Part shown: positions 23,131 through 63,677 of the stretch, one piece after another | Numbering within the stretch: the stretch's first letter is position 1 | How the letters are laid out: each line of letters starts with the position of its first letter | From: Geosiphon pyriformis | Taxonomy: Eukaryota; Glomeromycota; Glomeromycetes; Archaeosporales; Geosiphonaceae | DNA: 64,000 bases | Direction: 5' to 3' | Assembly: GCA_016748015.1 (NCBI GenBank) | Contig: JAAOMT010000703.1 | Coordinates: 1,010,445 to 1,074,444 of the forward strand | Translations under genes and position numbers: made by a program | Notes under the pieces: generated by a model | What the model was told of the DNA's origin: nothing | What the model saw: only the letters and a program-made list of their open reading frames with translations | Database searches by the model: none

Positions 23131-26100
23131 TTACTTTATATTTTTCTCAGATATATCAATTGTAAAAAAAAGCTTTTTTTCATAAAAGCTTAAATATTGT
23201 CTAAAAAAAATTATTACATATATATCTGTTACTATTGTAAAATATGGCACAAAAAATGTTTTGGTTATTCAAAATAACAAGAAAAGTAGAACAATAAACT
23301 ATGTTTTGCTTGTAAGGAAACACTATTCAACAAAAAAATATGAAATAATATTTCTAATTAAAGAGGAACATACAATATATTATGTTAATACATAATTCTT
23401 ATAAGTAACTGAATAAGTTAAAAAATGTTTTTTAATGCTACATAGAACCAAGTACTTTTATACTTAGATAGTTATCCATACAATAAAGACAAAATCTGAA
23501 AAATAACAAGTACCAAAGTCAAAAACATTTTATCTAATAAAATATTAGTAATTAAAAACAACTTATCAAAATTTGTTAAAACCATTTTTATTCCAAATTC
23601 AGGCATCTTTGTTAAAATTCCGAGTAATTCAGAACAATTCCATGAACACTACCAAGATTTAAGATTTACTTAAGAAGAATAAAAACAGTATTTAGAATAA
23701 TTAAATGTTAGACTCTATAAATATTGTCTAATTTTCAATAACTTCAAATATTGTAATAATTGTAATTTTATTTACAATATACTATCACATATAATCTATT
23801 CAATTTCTAAAAAAAAAAAACCAATTATCAGCTATATTTTGAAATCAAAATCAAAATTCAATCACAATTCAGACTTTAATAATAATAATAACAATAGTTC
23901 TAATTCTATTTATAATAACAACTACAATAATAACAATTTAAACTCTAATTATAATTTTGAACAATATATTGTGCTCTCAAATTTTTTAATAAAGCAAAAA
24001 CTTAAATGGTTCAGCAATAATAATGAAGATATTATATTAGAATGCATACATAATATTAATTCAGAGTTTAATCTCAAATACTCAGAAAAAACTGTCATTA
24101 AATTAGAATCTCATTTGCATACCAGCATAAATTTAAAAATAACACTGGAAATTTCAACAACAATGATGGTTTAATTAGTGTTTAAATCTAGTTTAATGAA
24201 AAAAAAGATCAATATTAGAAAGGAATAATTGATGCAAAATATGTAAGAAATATTATTGTAATGCTATAAAACAAATCTGAAAAAACATATACTATTAAAT
24301 CAAATAAAAAAATAACATTGGCAATATTTCTACTTCTGATAAAAATATCTTAATTAATATTAATAAAAATAAAGAAAAAGTTAGAGATTATAGCAAAAAG
24401 AATAAATAGATTTGGATCCATGAATAGAATAGAGGTATCTGTTAATATAGTATAAAAAAAACAATTGATTAGAAAAAAATTATCTCCATCAATTAATTAA
24501 TTTTTATTTTACTATATAACCAATATATATTAATTATAAAGAAGAAAGTAAAGAATTAACCTCAAATTTTTGAAGTAAAACTTATCATTTGTAAATTAGG
24601 AAAGATTGCCATTATCAATTTTTACATACTAATCAAAAACCATAAACATATTAAAATTCTAATATATAATATAATTGAAGACTTAATTAAAATACTAAAC
24701 AGAACTACTATCAGATACTTAAACATTGAAGTTGAAAATCAAGCACCAATTATTATTTTAGATTTTCCACAACTTTGTGAATATGTAGATATTACATTAC
24801 AAACAATTTACAAACAAAAAAAATATTATTTGCTATAATTAAAACAATTGGAACAAATGAATTTAAGAAACTTAGACTTACTTTAATATATACAATTTAA
24901 GCTACTATTCAATAATTTTATTAATATCTTTGCAAATAAAAATGAATTTGGCAGAACTAATATTATTTAGCATCAGATTAAAATTGGAAATACAATATTA
25001 ATAAAACAAAGAGCATATCAAGTACTACTTATTAGTCATAAAATTATTTATTAAGAAATCAACTAAATATTAAATAATGGGATAATTCAATTATCAATGA
25101 ATTCATAGTTATTATCAGTAATACTTATTCAGAAGAAGAATAAAAAGATCTGCTTTTGTGTATATTATAGAAAACTCAATAATATTATTTATGGAAACAG
25201 TTATTCAACTTCATAGATTTAAAATTATTTAATGTTTTTGGAGAAAAAAAATAGTTTTTTATATTAGATTTAAATAATAATTACTAATAAGTAACCATGA
25301 AGTTAGTTTACAAGAAAAAAACAGTATTTACTACAAAAAAAAAACTTTGAATTTGATATTATGTCTTTTGACTTAACTAATATTCTAATTACTTTCTAAT
25401 AATTAATAAAAATTGTATATATTGAATTATTATAAAAATTGGTAATAGTCTATTTAAATAAGACCAATATGTTTTTTAAAACATTTGATAATTACTTTTA
25501 TTATCTTTAGCAAGTGTTTAAAAAACTAAAAAAAGCAGAACTAAAGTTGAATACTACCAAATATTTTTTTGGAAAAATTGAACTCAAGTTTTTGAAACAT
25601 ATTATAAACAAAGACAATATTAAAACAAATTCAAACAAAATTGAAATAGTTAAAAACTTTCTAATACTAATAAACTTAACAGAACTAAAAGCATTTTTGG
25701 AATTTGTTAAATAGTATTACTGCTTTATTCAAAACTTCTTTAAACTGGCTCAACCATTCTATTAACTTCAAGCAAAAAACATCAAATACAAATAGACTAA
25801 AACTCAACAAAAAGTTTTTGATATCTTAAGAAAAAAGCTTATTTAAGCTTTAATATTAATCTATCTAGATTATAGCAAGTTATTTATTATTACTATCAAT
25901 GTATTTAGTTAAGTATTAGAAGCTATATTGTCACAAAAAAAAGCAGATAAATGAAAACATCTAATAATATATGCTAGTTAAAGTTTGAATCTAATTGAAA
26001 AAAACTATAATATACTAATATTGTAACTCTTAGCTATCTATTGAGCTGTTATAAAATAAAAAAAATACTTGAGTCAAAAGTTTAAAGTGTATACTAATTA

Positions 26101-53550: not shown

Positions 53551-54421
53551 TATTATTCATAGAAATATAGGAAATATATTAGCATAATTAGTAGCCAATC
53601 AGAAGTAGGCATAGTAAATGTGGAATTCTAGGATTCCTCTTATGAATTGCAGGATTTCAGGAATTTCAGAATTCCCCAATAAGGAATCGCAGGATTCCAG
53701 AATTCCAGGATTCCTCTCAAAGGAATCGCAGGATTCCAGGAATTCCAGGATTCTTGTTATGAAGAATCAAGAAATTGAGGAATCTTAATTATGTATATAT
53801 AGTAGCAAGATTAAAAGCTGAAAAGACAGACCTCTCAGTGTAGATTTAATCTAAGCAACCTTTCACTTCTCAATTATCAAATAAATAATTATTTTATATC
53901 TTAATCCACTCTTCACTATCAACACTTCATGTTGATAATAATTGATACTTAACCATGCTAGAACAATAGCTCTTGATCATGGCTATTGACAAAATATTAA
54001 CTTACCCAATTGCCTTGGCTTATCTTTATCATCATTATTTTCTTTATTGTATTTCTTTTTTTCTTTGATTCTGTTGTGTCTACTAATTGATTGAGAATTA
54101 AAAGTGCTGAGTTATTGATGTCACGGATAGCCTGATAAAAGACCCAGAAATAAGAGTAGATTTATATATATTATCAGTTAGCTTACCAGAAGGGCATGAC
54201 TGCCAGAATAAATCCGGCCACCAAGCTGAAAAAGAAATTGGGAAACAACTGACAACTACCAACAAATTGCCGCACTATCGAATCTCTGTCCATTATACAA
54301 AGAACTCCATTAAAACTTTCAGATACAACACATTCAGAATATCATCAATGGAAATAGCTTTTGAACACCAAGTTACGGGTTTGTTATTTAACTTGAGACT
54401 CCAAATAATTCAACTATAACA
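53551..54421 (+). repeat. 5' LTR of Gypsy F
   Basis: Begins TATTATTCATAG (ancestral TG changed to TA; the 3' copy has TG) and ends in CA. It carries an array of GGATTCC/GAATTCC words (about 53620-53760), a TATA block at 53791-53802 and CTCAGTGTAGATTTAATC downstream, probably near the RNA start. It is aligned over its full length with 62824-63677. Confidence 0.9.
53791..53802 (+). promoter_or_regulatory. TATA box of Gypsy F 5' LTR
   Basis: ATGTATATATAG, conserved at the same place in the 3' LTR (about 63047-63058), the solo LTR and the old 5' LTR. The position ahead of the presumed R region suits a Pol II core promoter. Confidence 0.55.
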
Positions 54422-54483: not shown

Positions 54484-57400
54484 GTGGCAGAATCAAAAAT
54501 AATAGAGACAAACCATCTAGGATTTGCAAAATTCTTATTTCAACAGTATAGTCAATAGCTAGGCTTAAACAACAACCATTACCCAGCAGAATCAGCTTTT
54601 AACTTTTACGTCAACAAAAAAATCACAGATTTCTTAGGAAGACCAGTTGACATTGAATCAGCAAGAGAAAATTTCTATTCGGAACTAATCCAACACACCA
54701 ACTTACTCAGAAATCACAGCTTTGCACTTATTATCAGAGAAATCAACTAAGAAATTGAAAGATATACACAAAAGACATTCCCTATTACTTGCCAGGACAA
54801 AGGCAAAGGAAAACTATAAACACCAGCAATAACACCCAAAGGAATACAAATTTCTAACTAGAAGAAACAAAGAATTGAATCTCCGATATACCCATCATAT
54901 CATCACATGTCCAGAAGTACCATCAACATTGCATCAGTAGATGCATCCACCAGTACAAAGCCATCACTAGCAAGAATCGCGTTTTAGAGTAACCAAAAGA
55001 AAAATGAACTATTAGGAGCATACGGCAATTATTTTGAAAAATTTAAATCAAAATCGCCAACACCATCAGGATTTCGATTACCACCTTATCAGCCAGATTT
55101 TGGAACCATCAGTCCCTGAGAAATTACTGAATCAGAAGAAAAAAAAGATGAGGATTAGAAATTTAATTACCAAAACCTAATCCTAGAAGACCCGAACATT
55201 CAAACTCAGCAACATTTAGAAAATTCGGAAATCAAAACTCCAAATATTCAAACCCCGCCAAATCAAAGAAATCAAAACCCTGAGTTAATTCATCAGCAAA
55301 ATCTACCTCCAGTTATCGTCATTGATCAACTACCAATTGAGCCGATCAGTGAGCCAATTCAATCACCTCCAGTACCATCCCAACAACTATTACCTCTTCA
55401 ACAACCATTTCAACAGCCATCACAACCACCCAACTTAGATCCAATGGCCTATGCACCAATTACAAAACTTGACAACTTTACTGGCAAAGAGGATGACACT
55501 CAAGTATGGCTAAATGATGTAGAAAAAACCATCACAGCCAATAAATAGAATGATGCCCGGGCAATACAAGCTATTTCCTATTTTCTCAAGAATACTGCCA
55601 ATTCATGATACCAGAGCTTGATTAATAAATCACAAGATTTTGATGCCTTCAAAGTGGAATTCCAAAGATACTTCAGCAACAATAACAGCATTAATCACCT
55701 AGTCAACATGTTCACCACCATGAAACAAGGAGAAACTGAAGCAGTCACCACTTACCTGGGACGCTTCCATCGAAATCTGTACCAAATTCAAGCAATTGAT
55801 GCCAATTATTTCACAGCACCACAGATTCTCAACCAGTTTATTCATGGTCTGTGCAGCAGCATCCTGCAACATGTACGTCCGTTGCATCCAGGCACACTTC
55901 AAGACACAGTCACACACGCCAGAGATTTTGAATCCACTGAGTCAGAGGCCAACCATGCCCAAGCCGTTAATCTAGTAATGAATGGATCATCTGAATTGGA
56001 TTTCAAATTGGAGAAGTTCAGTGAATTAATTAATAAGAGATTAGAAGGATACTTAGCTGACAATTATGCCATTTATCAGCTTCCACAATGACGCAATAAT
56101 CAAAAAAACTCTAATTGTGGCCAAAATCAACCACGTCCAGCTTTATCCAATCAACAGTGACAACAAGAAATGTATATCTGCCACTATTGTGGTAAACAAG
56201 GACATATTCAAATCGACTGCTGCCAACATTTAAATAACCAATGATCGGGAAATCAATATCAAAACCCCAATTGCCAGTTCTCAACTCCGAATCATCAATC
56301 AAACTCAACACAATATCAAACTACTTACTTGCCAACAACGCAGCAATCAATTTATCAACCACCAGTATATCAAGCTCCAATTTATCAACCAACGGCCCCA
56401 ATTTATTAGCAACAGCCACAGGTAATATATCAACCACAACTGCCAACAATCTATCAATCCCAAATAATTCAGACCCTGCCACAAAACTTACCAGCCAGCG
56501 GAGTCCAAAGACTGAAAATCATGCAGCAAAACTGGAGATTATCAATAATAGTTCATCAGCCAATCCTCAGCTCCTTTAGTCAAACAGAATTTTGTGAACA
56601 GAATTCAGGTGCCAGAAATTCCCAAAACCCGAATTCCCAGGACTATTTAAGTCTTCTGGTTACTCCAAAAGACACCTCACCCAGCAACCAGGAACCCACC
56701 CAAAAACAACAAACATGTACCAGCAATATTCCACCAGCAACAGTCACCAATGACGAATCACTGAATGCCATTTTCTTATTCAAACTTGAGGAACTGTCAA
56801 CCATGCCATTATTTAGTGGAGCCGCACTAAAAGAAAAGCCAATTACCACCATGTACACTGATGCAAAAATTAATGGCCATCTCATCAAACTAATTCTTGA
56901 CAGTGGTTCAGCAGGCAGCATCATCACATGACAACTCATGGATCAATTAGGTCGCCGAGTTGATTGAACTGCTAGTGCCAGAATCATCATGGCTGATGGA
57001 GCAACCAAGACTCCAATCAGTGAAATTGATGACTTACCAATCGAAATTAATGGCATTATAATACCAATTAAAGTACTCATTATGGAAGTCATCCAATACC
57101 AAGCTCTAATTGATAATGACTGGCTGTCCAAGACAAACGCCACTCTGGACTGGAATACACAAAAGCTTTAACTCAGCCAGAACGGGCAACACACGTGAGT
57201 ACCAGCAACGTGTGGCCACTTCAAGGCTACTAACACCACAGCACCACTAATCAACTTTGAGGAAGAGAAACCAAAACCTACCTGGGAAGCCTACCAAGTG
57301 TCATGGGCTGACAAAGAGCACAATGAACTGCCACCAATACTCTCTTGGGACAACAATGGGAAAGGGAAGCAAATAAACAAACTTACCTAGGAAACCGATA

Positions 57401-57560
57401 ATCTGACTTGGACCAACAATGAACAAGAAGAAGCCTCTAGTTGAGAATAGAATGAAGATAAGGGAAAAAGAAAAAAAAAAAAGAAGGAATGCCACCAACC
57501 ATCATCATTTATAATCCCTATACCCACCACACTCCACAACAATCTAATTATTGATAGCCA
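54484..57560 (+). pseudogene. Gypsy F gag-protease frame
   Basis: One frame with several stops. The expected start codon is GTG at 54484-54486; the old copy has ATG there. Domains in order: an N-terminal part (IIETNHLGFAKFLFQQYSQ), a Pro/Gln-rich linker with repeated PNIQTP-like words, a retrotransposon Gag core (about 55440-55970, ITKLDNFTGKEDDTQVWLND, then TYLGRFHRNLYQIQA), and a zinc knuckle CHYCGKQGHIQIDC (about 56179-56220). A YQP/YQA-rich stretch follows (about 56300-56470), then the aspartic protease with ILDSGSAGSIIT near 56893-56928 and an ALIDNDWLSKTNATLDW end. The frame continues to about 57560, where pol takes over one base back. Stops are mostly at Trp and Gln codons. Confidence 0.8.
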
Positions 57561-57569
57561 AGGCTTGTA

Positions 57570-57810
57570 TGCATCAATTGTGGCAAGAAACTGTCATCAA
57601 TGGGTGCATGCTGTGGCAATGATAAGGAATACTACACCACAACAAAGTTCTACTGTCGTCTATGCTTACTCGAACACTTTGGACAACCAAAGAGACAAGG
57701 AAAATGGGATAACCAATCTTGTTTCACTTGTGAAGAGACCCTGCTAAATAAAGGAATGTGGAATGACATCCCAGGACGTGGAGGAATGTGTGACGCATTG
57801 TGTCAATACA
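57570..57810 (+). other. Cys-rich zinc-binding-like module in Gypsy F pol
   Basis: Reads CINCGKKL, CC, YCRLCLLEHFG, CFTCEETL and MCDALC, that is, repeated C-x2-C and C-x3-C pairs about 25-40 residues apart. The old Gypsy copy keeps the outline at about 23150-23340. It lies between the protease and the dUTPase. I do not recognise the family; a metal-binding fold is inferred. Confidence 0.6.
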
Positions 57811-58469
57811 CAATTCTAATAAGTGACTGGATAAAAAAAGGAACACCAATAGAAGCAGCCTGGAGAAGAGCTGTGCAGTGACTGGACAGTTGTCCACATG
57901 ACGATAACAAAATTTGAAGAATGGCAATTGGCAAAATAGAAGAAGTGACACTTAAAGAGATCAGAGAAATCAAAAACAACCCACCAGAACCCATTGAGCT
58001 TGACTGGGACGCAGAGCCAGTCATAAATTTTCTGAAACCAGAAGAGTTCCATGAACACTACCAAAACTTGGCACCCACTAGAGCAGAGCAAGAACAATGG
58101 CTAGCACAGTTGAATACAAGACTGTGTCACCATTGTTTAATTCTTAATGACTTTGAATATTGTGACGATTGTGACCTCATATACAATCCACCACCATGCA
58201 TGATCTACACAATCCCCAAAGAGGAAGAACCAATCAGCAGCTACACATCGAAGTTGGCATTGCCGCTCAATCCCAATTCAAACTCCAATGATGATGATAA
58301 GAATAACGGTTCCAGCTCCATTCAAAATGGCAATGACAATGACAACAATATTAACTCAGATTCAAACTCTGACTCAAACTATGAACAATATATTGTGCTT
58401 TCTGACCTCACCAAGGAACAAGAACTGAAATGGTTCAGCGATAATAATGAAGATATTATGCCAGAACAC

Positions 58470-58866
58470 GTGCACAATACTAATGTAGGATTTGATCTGA
58501 GATATCCAAGAACAGAAGCCATCAAATTGGAACCACATACATGCACCTGCATTGATTTGAAAATAGCACTGGAAATTTCAGCAACAACAATGGTTCAATT
58601 AGCATTTAGGAGTAGTTTAGCAAAAAGAGAGATTAATATAAGAGGAGGAATAATTAATGTGGGATATGTAGAAAATATCATCACTATGCTACAAAATGAC
58701 TCAAACAAAACCTATATAATAGAACTGAATGAAAAGATAGCACAAACAATATTCTTACCTTTGGTTAAAATAGCTCAGTTAGTACCAGTAGGAAACAGGA
58801 AAGAGTTAGAAATAACAGCAAGAAAGATACAGGGATTTGGGTCAATGGGTAGAATAAATGTATCAG
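58470..58866 (+). other. dUTPase domain of Gypsy F
   Basis: All five motifs of trimeric dUTPases are visible: VGFDLRYP (1), FRSSLAKR (2), RGGIINVGYVEN (3), EKIAQTIF (4) and QGFGSMGR (5). The motif 3 catalytic Asp is Asn at 58656-58658. The enzyme family hydrolyses dUTP to dUMP and keeps uracil out of DNA. Its place upstream of RT in pol fits a role during cDNA synthesis. Confidence 0.85.
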
Positions 58867-61800
58867 TTAATATGGCAGAGGAAAAAATTGTTGGCCAAGG
58901 AGAAATTATCTCAACCGGTCAAGCTATTTCTATTCCACCATATAGCCAGTACATGCTAGCAATAGAAAGAAAGGAAAAGAAGCAAGAACAGATTTTTGAA
59001 GCTAAAGCAAGCCTTTGTGAATCAGGAGAGATTGGACTGATCAATCTCTACATACCAGCCAAAAGCTATAGCTGCATAAAAATTCCCATCTACAACAATA
59101 CTGATAATATTATCAACATACCAGAAGGAACCACTATCAGATATTTAACCACAGAAATAAAAGACCAACCACCAAACCCCATTCCAGACTTTCTACAACT
59201 TTGTGGATATGTTGACATCACATCACAAACAATCTATGGACGAGACAAATGTTATTTACTCCAACGAGAACAATTAGAACAAATAAACATGGGAAACTTA
59301 AATCCACTCCAATGTATGCAGCTCAAGATGTTGCTCAACAATTTCAAGGACATCTTTGCTAGTGAAAACAAGTTTGGCTGAACTAACATCATCCAGCATC
59401 AGATCAAAACTAGAGATATAATGCCAATCAAACAAAGAGCATATAGAGTGCTGCCAGCCAGCCACAAGATCATTTATTAAGAGATAAACCAAATGCTTAA
59501 CAATAGGCTAATTTAACCATCAATGAGCCCATAATTGTTATCAGTAGTACTTGTTCGTAAAAAAAATGGGAAAATCCGATTTTGTGTGAACTACAAGAAA
59601 CTCAACAATGTAATTCGTGGAGACAGCTATCTAACTCTATGAATACAAAAATTATTCGATGCTTTTGGTGGGAACAAATAGTTCTCAACATTAGACTTGG
59701 ACAGTGGTTATTGGCAAGTAGCCATGAATCCAGCTGACAAAGAGAAGACAGTATTCACTACTAGAGAAGGGAATTTTGAATTTGAAGTGATACCATTTGG
59801 CTTAACCAATGCCCCAGCCACTTTCCAATGGCTAATGAAAATTGTTTATACTGGCTTATTATGGAAATCAGTAGTTGTATACTTGGATAACACCAATGTA
59901 TTCTCAAAAACATTTGATGATCACTTTCATCATCTTCAACAAGTGTTTGAAAGGTTAAGAAGAGCAGGACTAAAGTTAAATGCAACAAAGTGCTTCTTTG
60001 GCAAAACAGAACTAAAATTCTTGGAACACATAGTCAGTAAAGATGGCATCAAAATGAATCCAAAGAAAATAGAGATAGTAAAGAACTTTCTAGTACCAAC
60101 CAATATGACTGAATTGAAATCATTCTTGGGATTCACGAGCTATTATCGATGCTTTATAAGAAACATTTTAAAGATAGCTCAACTGCTCAATAATCTACAA
60201 ACCAAGAATACCAAATATGAATGAACAGAAAGTCAACAAGAAGCTTTTGATATTCTGAAAAGAAAGCTTATTCAAGCTTCAGTACTGATCTACTCAGATT
60301 ACAACAAACTATTCATTATTACTACTGATGCATCAGACCAAGCATTAGGAACAGTACTATTTCAGAAGGGACCAGACAGCAGAGAATATTCAGTAACATA
60401 TGCCAGCTGAGGTCTAACACCAGCTGAAAAGAACTATGGAACACCAGAACTAGAACATTTAGCAATCTATTGGGCAGTTATGAAATAGAACAAATACTTG
60501 AGCTAAAAGTTTGATATATACATGGATCATAAAGGGTTAACATCACTTCAAAAGCAAAAATTTGATGACGGCTGCCAATTCAGATGGAAAATGGCACTAT
60601 TACGATATACTTATACTATACACTATAAGAAAAAAAAAGACAACAGAAATGCTGATGGTTTGTTGTGAATAAGACAAATTTAAGAACATTTCAACCCAAA
60701 AATATAACAAAACCAGAACAATATCAATGAAAAATAATAAAAGATAAACATACAAAAATATCAACAACTCTAACATTATATAAACACTCAACAGTTCAAG
60801 GAGAATTTATTTCAAATGGAACAAAAGAGGATCAAACAACAATCAAAATATTTTATCACTTACCAAAATATACTTTCTCGGAAAAATAAGAGGGATCCAG
60901 ATCAGCCAACCAGAGTAATTACAGAGCCAGAAAAAGAGACAATATTATTCAACATGCACTTAAATCCAACAGCCAGACACTTTCACAAAGAAGCAACCAT
61001 GGAAAGAACCAGAAAAAGATACTATTAGCCATCAATGTATCCAGACATCATCCAATATGTTCAAAATTGTGATGCTTATTAGCAAAGAGGAGGAACAAGA
61101 CCCAGTGAACCATTAAGACCAATCAAAGTGAGACAACTATTTGACCAGATTGGAATTGATTTAGTTGGACCATTAACAATCACCAGCAGAGGAAACAGAT
61201 ATATAGCAGTAGCCATGAACTATCTCACTAAATGGCCAGAGGCAAAAGCAATTCAAAAAGCAGATGCAAAATCTGTTGCTGAATTTGTTCATTAAGATTT
61301 AATTTGTCAACACAGATGTCCAAAGGAATTATTATCAGACCAAGGAACTTATTTTGTAAACAGAACATTAACAGAATTGAGCCAAAGATTCGAAATTAAG
61401 AGACCATTATTATTACCATACCATCCACAAACCAACAGATTAGTCAAAAGATTCAACAGAACATTGTGTGAAGCAATTGCCAAACTCAGCCAAAAAAACC
61501 AGGATGAATGAGATTTGTTCATACCATCAGTATTATTTGCTTATTGGACAATGAAGCAAGATACTACACAAGCAACACCATTCAAATTAGTATACGGTAA
61601 AACAGCAACATTACCAGTAGAGAGAGAAATTAATACATATCCAGCTAAACCAATAACAGAAGAGAATTTTCAAGAAACATTACTGAGAAGAACATATGAC
61701 TTAATGGAAACATTGGAAAACAAACAAAGAAGAGCAGCTGATAATATTCAAAAGTCACAAGAAAAACAAAAAGAAAGACATGATAGTCAACTACTAAACA

Positions 61801-62099
61801 AACCAGTTAAATTCAAGATTGGAGACAAAGTACTTTTATATCGTACTAAAGCGGAAAAACAATGAAGTGGAAAATTTGACTCCAAATGGGATAGACCATT
61901 TTACATAGAAGAAATTCTAGGAAATGGAGCTTACAAATTAAGACTGGATAACAAAATTTTAACTAAAGCAGCATATGGAGATCGACTGAAACCATACCAC
62001 AACATCACACTACCATCTACCAGTAATATTCTACAATTAGGAGTACAGAGAATACTAATCCAACCAGATGAGATTCCACAAAATCTGGAACCAATCATT

Positions 62100-62777
62100 A
62101 TTATTGACAACAACACATTAAATTGATTCAGCAAAGGAATATATAAAGACATGGTAGACACGACAGGAAATATCAGAAAAATAGAAATTACAGACAATAT
62201 TCACTCACTAACACAATAACTCTTTCAATTAATCCAACACCAGGAAATAGAAATTACAATCAATCAACAAACCATTCGATATCAAGATACTAGAAAGACA
62301 TTGCAACCCAGAACACAGAAAAAAACTGAAAATACAGTAGACAAAATCATTGCGAAAGTAAAATTAGCAATAAGAGAGCCGACAAAAGAGGCATTATATC
62401 AAGAGTTGACTAAAAAAACTTGGAATTGGTGGATACAACAATTTCTGAGAAACTATTGTTATTTTTACTTGGGACAACACATAAATATCCAGAATCTATA
62501 TATGGATAAAACAAAGCAATTATTTGACAAAAAAATACTACAACAATTAGAACATTTTGTGGGAAAAAACAACTTATCCACACAGGCCCGAGCCATATAC
62601 CGAATACACACAGCATTTCAGGATAGACCAGAAATATTACTCAACAAAACAATGGATATGGTTACCAGTAATCAATTGGGAAAGATCACCAATGCTCAAT
62701 TTAAAAAATTACAGACCCAAATAACACAAGTAATTCTTGAAAACGAAATCCAGGAAATACTTCAAGAGGAGGAATAA
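62100..62777 (+). other. C-terminal extension of Gypsy F pol after integrase
   Basis: About 225 residues in the pol frame after the integrase end (LKPYHNI). They are Gln/Lys-rich and probably helical, with KTWNWWIQQFLRNYCYFYLG and QLGKITNAQFKKLQTQITQV. The old copy keeps recognisable parts near 27340-27800. The family was not recognised. It occupies the place where some elements carry an extra ORF, but no membrane segment or signal peptide is seen. Confidence 0.55.
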
Positions 62778-62823: not shown

Positions 62824-63677
62824 TGTTACTCATAGAAATATAAGAAATATATTAGCATGATTAGTAGCCAATTAGAAGTAGGCATAGTAAATATGAAATT
62901 CTAGGATTCCTCTCAGGAATTGCAGGATTCCAGGAATTTCAAAATTCCCCAATAAGGAATTGCAGGATTCCAAAATTCCAGAATTCCTTTCAAAGAAATC
63001 GCAGGATTCCTGTCATGAAAAATCGAGAAATTGAGGAATCTCAATTATGTATATATAGCAACAGGATTAGAAGCTGAAAAGACAGACCTCTTAGTGTAGA
63101 TTTAATCTAAGCAACCTTTCACTTCCCAATTATCAAATAAATAATTATTTTATATCTCAATCTACTCTCCACTATCAACACTTCATGTTGATAATAATTA
63201 ATACTTAACCATGCTGGAACAATAGCTCTTGATTATGGCTATTGACAAAATACTAACTTACCCAATTGTCTTGGCTTATCTTCATTATCGTTATTTTCTT
63301 TATTGTATTTCTTTCTTTCTTTGATTCTGTTGTGTCTACTAATTGATTGAGGATTAAAAGCGCTGAGTTATTAACGTCATGGATAGCCTGGTAAAAGACC
63401 CAGAAATAAGGGTAGATTTATATATATTATTAGTTAGCTTACCAGAAAGGCACAACTGCCAGAATAAATCTGGCCACCAAGCTGAGAAAAAAATTGGGAA
63501 ACAACTGACAACCACCAACGAATTGCCGCACTATCAAATCTCTGTCCATTATATAAAAGACTCCATCAAAACCTTCAGATACAACATGTTCAGAATATCA
63601 TCGACAGAAATAGCTTTTAAGCACTAAGTTATGAGTTTGTTATTTGACTTGAGACTCCAAATAATTCAACTATAACA
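62824..63677 (+). repeat. 3' LTR of Gypsy F
   Basis: Begins TGTTACTCATAG and ends TATAACA, giving canonical TG...CA ends. It matches 53551-54421 apart from scattered substitutions (mostly C/T and G/A) and a shorter GGATTCC array. An 82-codon reading frame inside it is not shared with the 5' copy and is not counted as a gene. Confidence 0.9.

What the first reader, a model, noticed from the sequence alone, without database searches (positions are those of the whole stretch)
58470..58866. Retrotransposon-encoded dUTPase whose catalytic Asp is Asn in the young copy but Asp in the old copy
All five dUTPase motifs are present in Gypsy F, between protease and RT. Motif 3 reads GIIN (AAT at 58656-58658), whereas the far more decayed copy reads GIID (GAT at 24231-24233). 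The loss is therefore derived and is a G-to-A change with an A/T-ward direction. A dUTPase next to RT is notable in an element that suffers C-to-T decay, because the enzyme limits uracil in cDNA. dUTPase-containing Ty3/Gypsy elements in fungi are rare in what I know. The link to deamination defence is speculation.
Basis: partly seen in the sequence, partly recalled or inferred. Interest (0 to 1): 0.6.

Follow-up and report, generated by a model that had tools for sequence, protein, structure and literature searches.

The report
Retrotransposon dUTPase with ordinary decay mutation
A dead copy of a very abundant fungal-type jumping gene carries a real dUTPase domain whose catalytic aspartate has decayed to asparagine, but the same change arose separately in many other copies at the normal decay rate, so it is ordinary mutation and says nothing special about how the element works.

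Summary
A dUTPase domain (PF00692, 59 bits) lies between protease and RT. The motif-3 codon is AAT (Asn) at 58656-58658 and GAT (Asp) at 24231-24233. The Asn aligns with the engineered, nearly inactive D90N mutant of E. coli dUTPase.

The interpretation mostly fails. The window copy is not young: its LTRs differ at 70 of 852 sites, its protease frame has stops, and its RT motif reads YLDN. Among 90 same-family copies, 73 have Asp and 17 Asn. The catalytic G has decayed to A in 18.9% of copies, the median of 100 comparable G columns. The 20 Asn copies in a 120-copy tree need at least 18 changes, and the window copy's nearest relatives all have Asp. Asn is therefore private decay after insertion.

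Between lineages, net dN/dS of the domain is 0.05-0.23, so the enzyme was kept while the elements replicated. LTR decay is almost purely C:G to T:A and equal on both strands, which points to damage after integration, where a dUTPase cannot help. The host has its own dUTPase gene. dUTPase between PR and RT is already published for fungal Gypsy elements.

The parts
53553..54421 (+). 5' LTR of the element that carries the dUTPase
   Evidence: blastn self-match to 62826-63677; 70 differences in 852 aligned sites, 69 of them transitions
55609..56091 (+). gag fragment
   Evidence: Pfam Retrotrans_gag 3.4e-8 and Ty3_capsid 1.7e-7
56782..57200 (+). aspartic protease region (LILDSGSAGSIIT), broken by in-frame stops; limits approximate
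   Evidence: read by eye in the three-frame translation; no Pfam hit on the open piece 56410-56928
57558..57881 (+). cysteine-rich, zinc-finger-like stretch between protease and dUTPase
   Evidence: ORF list; no Pfam hit; cysteine pattern by eye
58455..58848 (+). dUTPase domain; catalytic Asp replaced by Asn at 58656-58658
   Evidence: PF00692, 59.1 bits; alignment to E. coli dUTPase D90N
58869..59174 (+). linker between dUTPase and RT, less constrained, no detectable relation to dUTPase
   Evidence: alignment A3; hhalign probability under 1%; net dN/dS 0.17-0.47
59682..60224 (+). reverse transcriptase palm; YLDD motif decayed to YLDN (AAC at 59889-59891)
   Evidence: Pfam RVT_1 2.3e-24; motif counts
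60774..61028 (+). piece of integrase with zinc-binding domain
   Evidence: Pfam Integrase_H2C2 1.3e-4, below its curated cut-off
62826..63677 (+). 3' LTR of the same element
23995..24420 (+). dUTPase domain of the more decayed copy, with frameshift and stops; catalytic codon GAT at 24231-24233; end approximate
   Evidence: repeat family D7 covers 23995-24219; three-frame translation; tblastn codon GAT

Best explanation
The feature is a genuine retrotransposon dUTPase of the homotrimeric all-beta family, encoded in pol between protease and RT of a very abundant Ty3/Gypsy family. While the elements replicate, the enzyme is kept by purifying selection and presumably removes dUTP near the reverse transcriptase (function inferred from the family; shown here are conserved motifs and low dN/dS). 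After insertion each copy decays by C-to-T changes on both strands. The Asp-to-Asn change in the window copy is one such private G-to-A hit in a dead copy and has no functional meaning for the family.
For: PF00692 match. Of 90 same-family copies 73 have Asp, 17 Asn and none any other residue. The catalytic G column has an A fraction of 0.189, equal to the median of 100 G-majority columns. The 20 Asn rows need at least 18 changes on a 120-row tree built without that codon. The window copy's four nearest relatives all have Asp. All 17 copies of a second lineage have Asp. Net dN/dS between lineages is 0.05-0.23 for dUTPase against 0.01-0.13 for RT. The LTR pair differs by 34 C/T, 35 A/G and 1 transversion. 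The RT motif has decayed from YLDD to YLDN in the same copy. Asn copies have no extra G-to-A load.
Against: Copies were sampled by similarity to the window copy or to Pfam, not at random, so the 19% Asn may be off. Synonymous divergence between lineages is near saturation, so the dN/dS values are rough. No enzyme activity was tested. Two Asn copies (L040, L077) are each other's nearest relatives and may share one event.
Confidence: 0.94

Rival explanations
1. A subfamily lost dUTPase catalysis and still spread, keeping the domain for a structural role, as reported for the inactive dUTPase-related protein of bovine immunodeficiency virus.
For: Asn occurs in 17 of 90 family copies and in 3 of 13 copies of another lineage; L040 and L077 share it and are mutual nearest relatives; inactive but needed dUTPase-like proteins exist in a lentivirus (title and abstract of PMC4261571).
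Against: At least 18 separate changes for 20 Asn rows; the Asn fraction equals that of an average G column; the window copy's nearest relatives have Asp.
Confidence: 0.03
2. One reading: the dUTPase counters uracil in cDNA and its loss relates to the C-to-T decay of the elements.
For: dUTPase-minus lentiviruses gain G-to-A changes (PMC4531489), and the change seen is G to A.
Against: LTR differences are strand-symmetric and post-insertional; synonymous G-to-A and C-to-T fractions are nearly equal; Asn copies have no more G-to-A; dUTPase acts on the nucleotide pool, not on cytosines in integrated DNA (family knowledge).
Confidence: 0.02
3. Sequencing or assembly error at this one base.
For: Reads were not available.
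Against: The same change is seen in many other copies on other contigs and fits the local decay spectrum.
Confidence: 0.01

Closest known systems
dUTPase-containing Ty3/Gypsy elements of fungi (PosPlaTy3-3, -4 and -5 of Postia placenta; elements of Phanerochaete chrysosporium; Tuber melanosporum), PMC2864245
   Same: dUTPase domain encoded in pol; in PosPlaTy3-5 it lies between PR and RT, as here
   Different: Very abundant here (150 of 150 scored candidates match, about 3,200 candidates in the first look); no chromodomain found in the pieces tested; host lineage probably different
Juno, Vesta and TelKA LTR retrotransposons of bdelloid rotifers, PMC5408684
   Same: dUTPase between PR and RT
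   Different: Animal hosts; no env-like ORF identified here
Retroviral dUTPases (beta-retroviruses, non-primate lentiviruses), PMC4531489
   Same: Retroelement-encoded trimeric-type dUTPase; a retroviral pol polyprotein dUTPase is among the PDB hits (1f7d)
   Different: Often at a different position in the polyprotein; far sequence relation
E. coli dUTPase D90N (PDB 1rnj, 1syl) and M. tuberculosis D83N (PMC5519681)
   Same: Same Asp-to-Asn exchange at the water-activating residue
   Different: Engineered there; random decay here

Membership tests
Homotrimeric dUTPase family (PF00692) | Profile match over the whole domain | tested here: met
   59.1 bits, cut-off 22, profile positions 5-127 of 129
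Homotrimeric dUTPase family (PF00692) | Five conserved motifs in order | tested here: met
   Motifs read in the window protein; motif columns counted in 60 copies
Homotrimeric dUTPase family (PF00692) | Catalytic Asp in motif 3 | tested here: not met
   Not met in the window copy (Asn), so this copy is a homologue, not a working dUTPase; met in 73 of 90 family copies
Homotrimeric dUTPase family (PF00692) | dUTP hydrolysis | not testable with these tools
   Needs an enzyme assay
Ty3/Gypsy LTR retrotransposon | LTR pair flanking gag and pol | tested here: met
   LTRs at 53553-54421 and 62826-63677; gag hit
Ty3/Gypsy LTR retrotransposon | RT upstream of integrase | tested here: met
   RVT_1 at 59682-60221; Integrase_H2C2 downstream, E 1.3e-4 but 22.4 bits against a cut-off of 25.5
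Chromovirus branch of Ty3/Gypsy | Chromodomain at the end of integrase | tested here: inconclusive
   No Pfam hit in the pieces 61512-61862, 61866-62123 and 62220-62774 of this broken copy; other copies not tested

The most novel reading that the evidence does not exclude
Some copies with an inactive dUTPase did transpose (for instance the pair L040 and L077), because enzyme from other copies or from the host was supplied in trans.
Probability: 0.05. Interest if true: 0.3.

Novelty: new member of a known kind. Interest (0 to 1): 0.13.

Why it matters
It shows that a catalytic-residue change read off two transposon copies is not evidence of loss of function in the family. It also documents a genome in which dUTPase-bearing Gypsy elements are extremely abundant and have kept the enzyme under purifying selection, even though the host has its own dUTPase gene.

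Tried and rejected
The linker after the dUTPase looked like a second, degenerate dUTPase by eye; profile-profile comparison gave no support (probability 0.1%, within shuffled controls), nor did Pfam. An AlphaFold model of dUTPase plus linker was poor (mean pLDDT 38), so no fold search was run. A host lacking its own dUTPase was considered after the yeast Dut1 query returned only transposon copies; a shorter query found a candidate exon, and L063 shows a multi-exon host gene with intact motif 3, GAGVIDADYRGE. An Rfam search for rRNA failed. A first dN/dS script failed on a wrong program option and was rerun.

Full report
Observation. The sequence at 58656-58658 is AAT and at 24231-24233 GAT, both in the frame of a dUTPase motif 3. 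The ORF 57921-59381 contains a dUTPase domain (PF00692, 59.1 bits) with all five motifs. phmmer against PDB sequences aligns the Asn with position 90 of E. coli dUTPase, and one of the best matches is the D90N mutant itself (1rnj, 1syl). D90N in E. coli and D83N in M. tuberculosis leave extremely low activity (PMC5519681). If expressed, the window copy's dUTPase would therefore be expected to be almost inactive (inference).

Anatomy. The element lies between LTRs at 53553-54421 and 62826-63677. It carries gag, a protease region with the DSGSAGS signature and in-frame stops, a cysteine-rich stretch, the dUTPase, a linker of about 100 residues, RT with motif YLDN, and an integrase zinc-binding domain. 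The copy is not young: the LTRs differ at 70 of 852 aligned sites and pol has several stops. In less decayed relatives the dUTPase sits inside long open frames, for example 1847 aa at C296:192347 (L016) and 1307 aa at C238:346475 (L007).

Is Asn a trait or decay? The own genome (124.7 Mb, 406 contigs) gave 150 of 150 scored dUTPase matches from about 3,200 first-look candidates, and 150 of 150 with the window domain as query. I read 60 loci and 60 further copies. In the window's family 73 of 90 copies have Asp and 17 Asn, with no third residue. The first base of this codon is A in 18.9% of copies; over 100 G-majority columns of the domain the median is 18.9% and the mean 20.4%. On a tree of 120 copies built without this codon, the 20 Asn copies need at least 18 changes, and the window copy's four nearest relatives all have Asp. 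In lineage B all 17 copies have Asp; in lineage C 10 of 13. With 19% Asn, finding one Asn among two copies has a chance of about 31% (2 x 0.81 x 0.19). The same copy has also lost the second Asp of the RT motif, as have 15 of 27 readable family copies.

Selection. Divergence between lineages minus divergence within them removes most of the decay after insertion. The net dN/dS of the dUTPase is 0.06 (C1 against C2), 0.05 (A1 against A2), and 0.15-0.23 between the three lineages; for RT it is 0.01-0.13 and for the linker 0.17-0.47. The lineage comparisons are near synonymous saturation, so these are rough. The enzyme was maintained while the elements replicated.

Decay and the deamination idea. 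Between the two LTRs there are 34 C/T, 35 A/G and 1 other difference. Per cytosine the differences are commonest at CpG (11 over about 30 cytosines), then CpA (29 over 207), computed from the counts. In lineage B, G-to-A and C-to-T are three to seven times more frequent at CpG than elsewhere. This is strand-symmetric change after integration, of the kind expected from methylcytosine deamination or a RIP-like process; which of these was not tested. Retroviral dUTPase limits uracil and G-to-A change during reverse transcription (PMC4531489), but here synonymous G-to-A and C-to-T fractions in the domain are alike (0.257 and 0.242), and Asn copies have no more G-to-A than Asp copies (0.198 and 0.206, P = 0.83). 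The proposed link is not supported.

Host. A multi-exon host dUTPase lies at C262:401900-403500 (L063), with GAGVIDADYRGE in motif 3. The host was not identified. An SSU rRNA gene on C320 matches the arbuscular-mycorrhizal primer AML2 (primer letters recalled from memory) with one mismatch, so an early-diverging fungus is likely but not shown.

Known or new. dUTPase in fungal Gypsy elements, including the PR-dUTPase-RT order, is published (PMC2864245); the same order is known in bdelloid rotifers (PMC5408684); and dUTPase domains are enriched among TE-related families in Entomophthora muscae (PMC11105155). The window element is a new member of a known kind, and the Asn is ordinary decay.

Limits. 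Copies were chosen by similarity, no reads or expression data were available, and the structure model was too poor to use. As the genome tool forbids a consensus of such elements, I counted residues per column and compared copies pairwise; the alignment tool prints a majority line by itself, which was not used.

Noticed in passing
53553-54421 versus 62826-63677: 69 of 70 LTR differences are transitions, equal on both strands, commonest per site at CpG and then CpA: an almost pure C-to-T decay.
   Followed up: partly
L063 (G000:C262:401900-403500): The host's own multi-exon dUTPase gene, with intact catalytic Asp.
   Followed up: partly
62220-62777: Open frame of 185 aa between integrase and 3' LTR without a Pfam match; may be an additional ORF of the element.
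   Followed up: no
57558-57881: Cysteine-rich, zinc-finger-like stretch between protease and dUTPase without a Pfam match.
   Followed up: no
59889-59891: RT catalytic motif YLDD has become YLDN; 15 of 27 readable family copies share this state.
   Followed up: partly
L061 (G000:C320:1044400-1046200): Only one place in the genome matches the AML2 SSU primer with up to one mismatch; the host may be an early-diverging fungus.
   Followed up: partly
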